Below, piece after piece: positions 10,501-43,223 of a stretch of DNA of 64,000 nt (position 1 is its first letter; each line of letters starts with the position of its first letter). A model generated the notes under the pieces. The model was given only the letters and a program-made list of their open reading frames with translations. It was not told where the DNA came from and ran no database searches. The DNA is from Cohaesibacter gelatinilyticus (lineage in GTDB: Bacteria > Pseudomonadota > Alphaproteobacteria > Rhizobiales > Cohaesibacteraceae), in the NCBI RefSeq assembly GCF_900215605.1, contig NZ_OBEL01000003.1:62001-126000 (forward strand), in the 5' to 3' direction. Both the position numbers and the translations under genes were made by a program.

Positions 10501-10537
10501 AAAAAAACGCGCCTCGAAAATCCGGGGCGCGTTTTTT
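10501..10537 (+). terminator. Terminator after glutamate dehydrogenase
   Basis: AAAACGCGCC pairs with GGCGCGTTTT, with further pairing of the flanking A and T runs, and the helix runs into TTTTTT. It begins about 15 nt after the stop codon. Confidence 0.9.
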
Positions 10538-10887
10538 ATTGGCAATATCAAGGGTGTAATAATGATCCATAGGATGTTTCTCACTGGTCTGCTGACAAGG
10601 CAGCTTTCGACGGACAATGCAGGGAAAATTTTCCTAAAAAGATAACGAAGCTCAACAGGCCAGTGAGAAACATCGAAGGCCAGATCTCCAAGTACTTCGT
10701 AATCAACCAGACTTTCACAGCTCTAGCTCTTCGTCATATACCCCGAGAAATCCAATCATAGGGATTATGCTTTCGCACCGTTGGTACTACTTACACTCTT
10801 GCACAATGCGAAAAGTTAAAGCTGCCTTAACCAAGCCTTCCTTACAATTGCCTCAACCGAATCCGTAAAAAAGGCAGTAAAGACCCA
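10538..10887. other. Gene-free stretch holding repeat element copy A
   Basis: No convincing coding frame is seen. Its first half holds the covarying 126-nt element (10567-10692). The remainder (10693-10887) is AT-richer and shows weak, gapped similarity to the sequence beside the second copy (CTTCGT after the element, TCATA.GG further on). It presumably also contains the promoter of the aminotransferase gene, for which I see no clear boxes. Confidence 0.6.
10567..10692 (+). repeat. Covarying 126-nt structured element, copy A
   Basis: This sequence aligns without a gap to the reverse complement of 33876-34001. In copy A, 10573-10591 pairs with 10656-10674, a 19-bp helix with one G-T pair, around a 64-nt loop. 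The loop begins in a 30-nt block (10591-10620, starting GCTGACAAGGCAGC) that is identical in both copies, and AAGATAACGA (10639-10648) is also identical. The helix sequence differs between the copies but pairing is kept in the same register, with six double compensatory changes. This is the pattern of a conserved structure in RNA or single-stranded DNA. I recognise no known family. Confidence 0.8.
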
Positions 10888-33702: not shown

Positions 33703-33875
33703 GTTCGTTCCAAAGCAATATTTGCAGCAATCTGGGCTAAGGGTCCATATTTTGATATTATATCAACGAAGGGAAAGAATGCCCCATATGACCGAACTTT
33801 TCGGGCTTTGTGGCAAGGAGCGGGTGCCGTCTTGGTCTGACTGACCACAAGGCAGCGGCGACGCAGTCCACGAAG

Positions 33876-34001
33876 CTTGAAAATCCGGCCTTTGGTGTTT
33901 TTCGATTGCTCGCTGAACATCGTTATCTTTCTTCCGAAAATGCCCCGGCATTGTCCGTCGAAAGCTGCCTTGTCAGCGAGCAATCGAAAAGCATCCTATG
34001 G
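33876..34001 (-). repeat. Covarying 126-nt structured element, copy B
   Basis: The reverse complement of this stretch aligns gap-free to 10567-10692. Here 33974-33990 pairs perfectly with 33899-33915 (17 bp). The 30-nt core (33948-33977) and TCGTTATCTT (33920-33929) are identical to copy A, as is the outer flank CCATAGGATG; the other flank matches 14 of 17. The helix uses different bases than copy A but the same pairing register. An open minus-strand frame crosses it (ADKAAFDGQCR shared with copy A), but that frame in copy A stops soon after and lacks a start. Confidence 0.8.
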
Positions 34002-34177
34002 GTTATTGTTCCCCCTCGTTGGTATTACCTGCTTTTGCGAAACATGGAAGGGGCATCAATGGTGGCACGCCTTTTGCTCTTCAACGGGCCATCCACCAAA
34101 ATGCCATCACAAGAGCAATCGCCATGGTCGATATATCTGGCTCGAAGAATCAGCCCGCCAATACCGAAATCTCTATT

Positions 34178-34213
34178 AGGACGTAGGCTCATAAATGAAC
34201 TGGATTTGGCGTC
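34178..34213 (+). repeat. Solitary end of the 265-nt inverted-repeat element
   Basis: It matches 32 of 36 positions with 42782-42817, starting AGGACGTAGGCTCATAAATG and ending GGATTTGGCGTC. No matching second end is seen downstream before dctP, so it looks like a truncated or solo copy of that element or of a parent insertion sequence. Confidence 0.75.
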
Positions 34214-42726: not shown

Positions 42727-42781
42727 GTCCAAGGCCCCGGATTCAACTTCATGATCCTGTCACGAGAAGTCGATAAGCAAC

Positions 42782-43046
42782 AGGACGTAGTCTCATAGAT
42801 GAGATGGATTTGGCGTCAAAATGGTCTGATATGGCTAGAAAAAGAGTGAAGGATGGGCTGGTTGCCCATTCAAACTCTTTATCGACGCCAGATCTTGACC
42901 ATTTTGTCGTCCGAAGGATAGGGCGATTTTTTCTGCTCATCGCGTCACAAGAGCTAGAAAATAGACCATATTGTCTGCACTCTTGCTTCTAGTGAGCAGA
43001 AAAACTTGCCTCTACCAAATCTACCGCATCTATGAGACTACGTCCT
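42782..43046. repeat. 265-nt element with 20-bp perfect terminal inverted repeats and internal hairpins
   Basis: AGGACGTAGTCTCATAGATG (42782-42801) is exactly complementary to 43027-43046. Similarity of the two ends continues into GATTTGG. Inside are GATTTGGCGTC (42807-42817) with GACGCCAGATC (42884-42894), enclosing AAAGAGT...ATGGGC with GCCCAT...ACTCTTT (42841-42880), and TTTTTCTGCTCA (42928-42939) with TGAGCAGAAAAA (42993-43004). No transposase is encoded. It looks like a MITE derived from an insertion sequence, or a structured RNA. One end recurs at 34178. It occupies the gap between oxyR and typA. Confidence 0.88.
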
Positions 43047-43223
43047 AACCCTAATCGGGCCTTGTGGCGCAAATCTGCGCATTTACGCGCAATGAAGGCT
43101 TTTCAAATCATGCGCAATAGTATAGAGCTTGCGCCAATTCCATAGACAAGGCGGGTCGAACACGGTTCCCCGGTCGCAACCGGGCGCATTTTCTGTGCCC
43201 TATCGATTAAGAGATCAAACCTC

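What the first reader, a model, noticed from the sequence alone, without database searches (positions are those of the whole stretch)
10567..10692. Two-copy 126-nt element with a covarying long helix around an identical core
10567-10692 aligns gap-free to the reverse complement of 33876-34001. Number both 1-126. The core 25-54 is identical (30/30), 73-82 identical, 1-10 identical and 110-126 matches 14 of 17. Blocks 11-24 and 83-109 differ strongly, yet in both copies base i pairs with base 115-i. Over the 14 pairs common to both helices (12-25 with 90-103), six pairs change on both sides and stay Watson-Crick (14, 17, 18, 20, 23, 24), one changes between C-G and T-G, and seven are unchanged. 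Chance or simple divergence would not keep the register. This indicates selection for, or a mechanism that regenerates, a helix of locus-specific sequence around a fixed loop. I know of no named family with this core. It could be a regulatory RNA, a mobile single-strand hairpin (integron attC- or IS200-like logic), or a retron/guide-like RNA with variable arms.
Basis: seen in the sequence. Interest (0 to 1): 0.87.

Follow-up and report, generated by a model that had tools for sequence, protein, structure and literature searches.

The report
Shape-conserved twin-hairpin mobile element
The two matching stretches are copies of a small jumping DNA element that is spread through many alphaproteobacteria and whose folded shape is kept even though the letters of its stems change from copy to copy, so it lets one study how DNA copying and selection keep a hairpin intact.

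Summary
The 126 nt is one part of a larger thing: a non-autonomous (MITE-like) mobile element of about 265 bp. It has inverted-repeat ends (TACCAACGAGGGG...), a 3-bp TNA target duplication, and two inverted copies of one ~113-nt hairpin inside, making a Y-shaped three-stem fold. The genome (Cohaesibacter) has at least nine long copies plus deletion derivatives. The window holds three: 10546-10786, 33761-34024 and a third, unreported one at ~42781-43047. A covariance model finds the hairpin in 66 of 397 genomes of the order and 41 of 385 sampled across the class. Stem sequences differ widely, yet 90.7% of pairs are kept (861 double-changed cells; shuffled 234; register-shifted 118-191). The internal loops GGCAAGGC / AACGC and the central CCGAAGG are strongly conserved. 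Rfam has no match. Near-identical siblings show arms being copied onto each other (perfect palindrome 8, 18, 34 bp), so template switching supplies many double changes. Kept loops and wobble pairs argue that selection on the fold also acts. The transposase and any RNA function are not shown. Known kind (ERIC/RIME-like palindromic MITEs), new and unusually widespread variant.

The parts
10546..10786 (+). Copy A: old, decayed element (241 bp). Left end TATCAAGGGTG, right end CCGTTGGTA; flanks CAA/CTA (degenerate TNA duplication). Hairpin A intact, hairpin B decayed.
10577..10670 (+). Copy A hairpin A: arms 10577-10595 / 10652-10670 around the fixed core; CM match 10566-10680 (77.4 bits)
33761..34024 (-). 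Copy B: complete 264-bp element, ends TATCAACGAAGGG / TACCAACGAGGGG, 3-bp duplication TTA/TTA
33888..34002 (-). Copy B hairpin A (87.2 bits); arms 33973-33991 / 33898-33916
33783..33896 (+). Copy B hairpin B: inverted second copy of the same hairpin model (59.7 bits)
42781..43047 (.).
42805..42918 (+). Copy C first hairpin (36.7 bits)
42911..43023 (-). Copy C second, inverted hairpin (39.6 bits)
34177..34213 (+). Fragment resembling the left end of copy C (TAGGACGTAGGCTCATAAATGAACTGGATTTGGCGTC), next to copy B
   Evidence: read from sequence

Best explanation
It is a non-autonomous transposable element (MITE-like) with a dyad-symmetric, three-stem fold. SHOWN: ~265 bp; outer stem formed by the two ~30-nt inverted-repeat ends; two inner hairpins that are inverted copies of one ~113-nt module, each with a conserved asymmetric internal loop (GGCAAGGC / AACGC) and a variable but complementary stem; a conserved CCGAAGG joint between them; dispersed intergenic copies; 3-bp TNA target duplications for TACCA-type ends, and CTAG-like flanks for the AGAGC/AGACC-type ends of relatives; shortened derivatives. 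INFERRED: a DDE transposase acting in trans on the terminal bases moves the element, and the short CTAG/TNA targets suggest an IS5-family-like enzyme (none was matched to these ends). The stems drift in sequence but stay paired for two reasons. First, replication template switching copies one arm onto the other, which makes several compensatory changes in one event. Second, over-correction that destroys the internal loops is selected against in lineages that go on spreading, because the folded form (extruded DNA hairpin or transcript) is needed for movement, for host tolerance, or as a protein-binding site.
For: Nine long copies in the genome, in intergenic regions. Clean element edges and end inverted repeats. 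TNA duplications identical on both sides in most copies, with all four middle bases represented: TAA, TTA, TGA, TCA. At the GDH-aminotransferase spacer, same-genus relatives that keep the gene pair lack the element, e.g. G005. Deletion derivatives and TIR-only palindromes. 427 end-motif hits against 1 control in G009. Covariation. Own ends match each other 84% on average, other elements' ends 54%. Twin inverted hairpins found by one model at ~104-nt offset in many species. Wide, patchy distribution: order 66/397 genomes, class 41/385. Arm copying: siblings L036g, L037g, L101g have 8, 18 and 34 bp of exact inner palindrome; L008 has an 18-bp exact run after two T.G to C-G changes; 159-161-bp variants have exactly identical inverted ends with copy-specific variants.
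Against: No transposase with matching ends was found in the own genome or three relatives, so the mover is inferred. Selection on the fold is not separated cleanly from regeneration by template switching plus selection on the loop sequences alone. No transcript data. Two different end types suggest more than one mobilising enzyme. CM E-values are rough.
Confidence: 0.78

Rival explanations
1. A multicopy regulatory or housekeeping RNA gene family: the Y-shaped transcript is the functional product, and copies are duplicated RNA genes or UTR elements.
For: Strong covariation with conserved internal loops; excess of G.U over A.C (214 to 69) on the strand read for each hairpin; copy A keeps its helix although its ends and second hairpin have decayed.
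Against: Inverted-repeat ends and target duplications at each copy; presence/absence between close relatives, 15 of 18 genus genomes lack it; hundreds of end motifs in one genome; the two hairpins are inverted, so one strand never gives both in the same polarity; the G.U count is partly a detection bias of the model.
Confidence: 0.12
2. Pure mutational regeneration: quasi-palindrome correction by template switching alone keeps the stems paired, without selection on folding (the element itself is still a MITE).
For: Progressive arm copying in siblings; L007 right end carries the left-end variant; short variants with exactly copied ends; the mechanism is established (PMC8794818).
Against: Internal loops and the conserved U.G pairs (64 and 41 of 97 sequences) persist across families although correction would remove them; the joint CCGAAGG is conserved.
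Confidence: 0.2
3. A single-strand-DNA mobile hairpin of the attC or IS200/REPIN type, moved by a tyrosine-recombinase or HUH enzyme that reads the folded strand.
For: Two inverted polar hairpins with conserved mismatches resemble the layout of REP pairs (BIME/REPIN; own knowledge).
Against: Terminal inverted repeats and 3-bp target duplications, which HUH and integron mobility do not make.
Confidence: 0.06
4. A member of the rhizobial RIME/ABC mosaic elements.
For: Relatives with AGAGC ends share CTAGAGC...GCTCTAG termini and an ATTTGAT motif with ~110-nt double-palindrome repeats seen in pSymB of Sinorhizobium meliloti.
Against: The hairpin model finds nothing in 450 kb of pSymB even at E=1; the anatomy there is two hairpins without an outer stem; RIME sequences themselves could not be fetched by name.
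Confidence: 0.08

Closest known systems
Bacterial MITEs with strong folds (ERIC, RUP, Correia/NEMIS, QMITE)
   Same: Short, no ORF, inverted-repeat ends, short target duplication, intergenic, stable predicted stem-loop (PMC2229807, PMC10969869)
   Different: TNA or CTAG-like target rather than the usual TA; two inverted polar hairpins inside; fold conserved across a bacterial class while stem sequence turns over
RIME / ABC mosaic elements of rhizobia (Osteras 1995, cited in PMC2573895)
   Same: Hyphomicrobiales, palindromic, intergenic, many copies; AGAGC-type relatives seem to share CTAGAGC ends with repeats in pSymB
   Different: No match to the hairpin model; smaller, no three-stem layout
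BIME/REPIN (paired inverted REP hairpins)
   Same: Two inverted polar hairpins with conserved mismatches
   Different: Hairpins are several times longer; inverted-repeat ends and target duplications present
Template-switch maintenance of RNA hairpins (Monttinen and Loytynoja 2022, PMC8794818)
   Same: Same signature: multi-base compensatory change by copying one arm
   Different: Here in a multicopy mobile element, with a visible series of intermediates among siblings

Membership tests
MITE (non-autonomous DDE-type element) | Terminal inverted repeats at both ends of each copy | tested here: met
MITE (non-autonomous DDE-type element) | Target-site duplication of fixed length | tested here: met
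   3-bp TNA, identical both sides in most copies
MITE (non-autonomous DDE-type element) | No transposase gene inside, dispersed copies | tested here: met
MITE (non-autonomous DDE-type element) | Ends shared with an autonomous element (usual but not required) | tested here: inconclusive
   none found in four genomes; only two transposase families searched and several assemblies are drafts, so absence is weak
IS630/Tc1-mariner-derived MITE | TA duplication and IS630 transposase in genome | tested here: not met
   duplication is TNA; no DDE_3 hit in own genome
IS5-family-derived MITE | TNA or CTAG target and matching IS5 ends | tested here: inconclusive
   targets fit from own knowledge of the family; DDE_Tnp_1 transposases present but their ends do not match
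Any Rfam family | Score above gathering threshold | tested here: not met
RIME/ABC elements | Homologous sequence/structure to S. meliloti repeats | tested here: not met
   0 hits in 450 kb pSymB; only termini resemble. Caveat: which pSymB repeats are the annotated RIMEs was not verified
Integron attC | R'/R'' box motifs and integrase | not tested
   not scanned; target duplications argue against
IS200/IS605 or REPIN | No target duplication | tested here: not met
   target duplications present; HUH gene search not run

The most novel reading that the evidence does not exclude
A class-wide lineage of mobile elements in which the heritable unit is a fold rather than a sequence: a Y of two inverted polar hairpins recognised by a protein through its internal loops, whose stems are continually rewritten by template switching and whose ends have been exchanged between at least two transposition systems.
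Probability: 0.3. Interest if true: 0.82.

Novelty: new variant of a known kind. Interest (0 to 1): 0.62.

Why it matters
Compensatory change is normally read as proof of a functional RNA. Here is a dispersed repeat family, present in roughly a tenth of sampled alphaproteobacteria, in which arm copying is visible between siblings and yet loops stay conserved. It gives a natural system with many independent copies to measure how much of such covariation comes from mutation and how much from selection, and it is a source of false or real 'structured RNA' calls in alphaproteobacterial genomes. It also asks what protein reads the twin hairpin.

Tried and rejected
IS630 origin (first guess from the TA at the ends): rejected, the duplication is TNA and no DDE_3 gene was found in the genome. 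Autonomous partner by end motif: a 719-bp pair at G000 C7:35861-36579 looks like chance plus a broken end. DDE_Tnp_1 transposase loci in four genomes: no matching ends. blastn against plasmids: no match, since conserved blocks are too short for it. Viral contigs with the exact core: none. RIME identity: not supported by the model. Literature searches found no description of a twin-hairpin element in alphaproteobacteria, but subscription papers are not held.

Full report
CHECK. The two stretches align without gaps at 95/126 identity, and every pair statement in the finding is reproduced. Neither is a protein gene: copy A lies between the stop and terminator of an NAD-glutamate dehydrogenase gene on one side and an aminotransferase on the other; copy B lies between a sigma-54 response regulator and a DctP gene.

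MORE COPIES AND TRUE EXTENT. The own genome holds nine copies at E below 1e-18. Aligned with flanks, identity begins at TACCAACGAGGGG and ends at CCCCTCGTTGGTA, about 265 bp, with unrelated sequence outside. The 126 nt are therefore the inner left part of a larger element. Both sides of each copy carry the same 3 bp of the form TNA (TAA/TAA, TTA/TTA, TGA/TGA, TCA/TCA) in most copies of several genomes. Deletion forms occur: TIR-only palindromes of 52-55 bp and copies lacking hairpin A. In the genus, 3 of 18 genomes carry it. One of them, G009, has 427 end-motif hits against 1 in the reversed control.

EMPTY SITE. The gene pair around copy A is found in several same-genus genomes and none of the loci fetched has the element there. 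In G005 the terminator is followed directly by the promoter-proximal sequence that in the own genome lies beyond the element. Spacers are too diverged for a base-exact empty site.

ANATOMY. Folded as one strand the element is a Y: an outer stem made of the two ends, and two inner hairpins. One covariance model, built from hairpin A only, hits both inner hairpins in opposite orientation, offset by about 104 nt, in many species. So the two hairpins are inverted copies of one module. The consensus of a hairpin is TTTGATGg-arm-GGCAAGGC-inner hairpin-AACGC-arm'-cCACCGAAGGC. In the window the refined model yields hairpin B of copy B (33783-33896) and a third element at ~42781-43047 with quite different ends.

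COVARIATION. Over 20 copies (19 from the genus, one from another genus): 96.5% paired, 15 pairs doubly changed, 0 of 500 shuffles as high. Over 97 hairpins from many families: 90.7% paired, 37 of 38 pairs doubly changed somewhere, 861 cells against 234 shuffled and 118-191 slid. That alignment is fitted to the model, so the paired percentage leans upward; the slid controls share the relatedness. Sampled arm columns are 45% identical between sequences, loop columns 79%. The outer stem behaves likewise: an element's two ends match each other at 84%, other elements' ends at 54%.

DISTRIBUTION. Model R2 hits 66 of 397 genomes of the order, in 42 of 141 genera, and 41 of 385 genomes sampled over the class. 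At most nine candidates per genome were scored, so copy numbers are lower bounds. Named carriers include Roseibium marinum, Labrenzia sp. R4_2, and Cohaesibacter, Devosia, Aurantimonadaceae and Pelagibius MAGs. Most relatives have AGAGC/AGACC ends flanked by CTAG-like sites instead of TACCA ends with TNA. Rfam has nothing.

HOW THE STEMS STAY PAIRED. Siblings L036g, L037g and L101g show an exact inner palindrome of 8, 18 and 34 bp: first one strand of the internal loop, then the two T.G pairs, have been replaced by the exact complement of the other arm. Copy B of the window has two T to C changes that turn T.G pairs into C-G relative to its siblings, giving an 18-bp exact run. Short G009 variants have ends that are exact inverted copies including copy-specific letters, and L007's right end carries the left-end variant. 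This is the signature of template switching (PMC8794818). But across families the internal loops, the joint and two U.G pairs persist, which unchecked copying would erase. I therefore infer copying plus selection on the folded form. The balance is not measured. An excess of G.U over A.C mismatches (214 to 69) fits folding as a single strand but is partly a detection bias of the model.

WHAT MOVES IT. Fixed end bases with short target duplications point to a DDE transposase in trans; TNA and CTAG targets are known to me from IS5-family subgroups (own knowledge). No partner with these ends was found. This step is inference.

VERDICT. Real, significant, and larger than reported: a new, class-wide variant of the bacterial palindromic MITE kind. 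Not filed under RIME, attC, IS200 or any Rfam family.

Noticed in passing
   Followed up: yes
G009 (genus relative), whole genome; L116-L135: 427 matches to the end motif against 1 in the control: a massive expansion, with 159-161, 179-182, ~263 and ~320-bp size classes.
   Followed up: partly
L328 (G009:C40, GDH-aminotransferase spacer): CTAGAGCATATTTGTTGAAAAGTGTGTGCGGTTTTCGGAC..., resembling the repeat CTAGAGCGGGATGAGGAAAAGTGTGTGCGGTTTTCCGCC found several times in S. meliloti pSymB (L278:30041, L285:25541).
   Followed up: no
L106 (G000:C2:154132) and L107 (G000:C2:324215): 52-55-bp palindromes made of little more than the two element ends.
   Followed up: partly
window 10509-10540: Clear intrinsic terminator of the glutamate dehydrogenase gene; copy A sits directly after it.
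   Followed up: no
L138 (G000:C6) and L137 (G018): Insertion sequences with a DDE_Tnp_1 transposase whose inverted repeats begin CTAGGTTCTGTTGACAAACTG / CTCTAGGTTCAATCGACATTCA; ends unlike the TACCAACG ends.
   Followed up: partly
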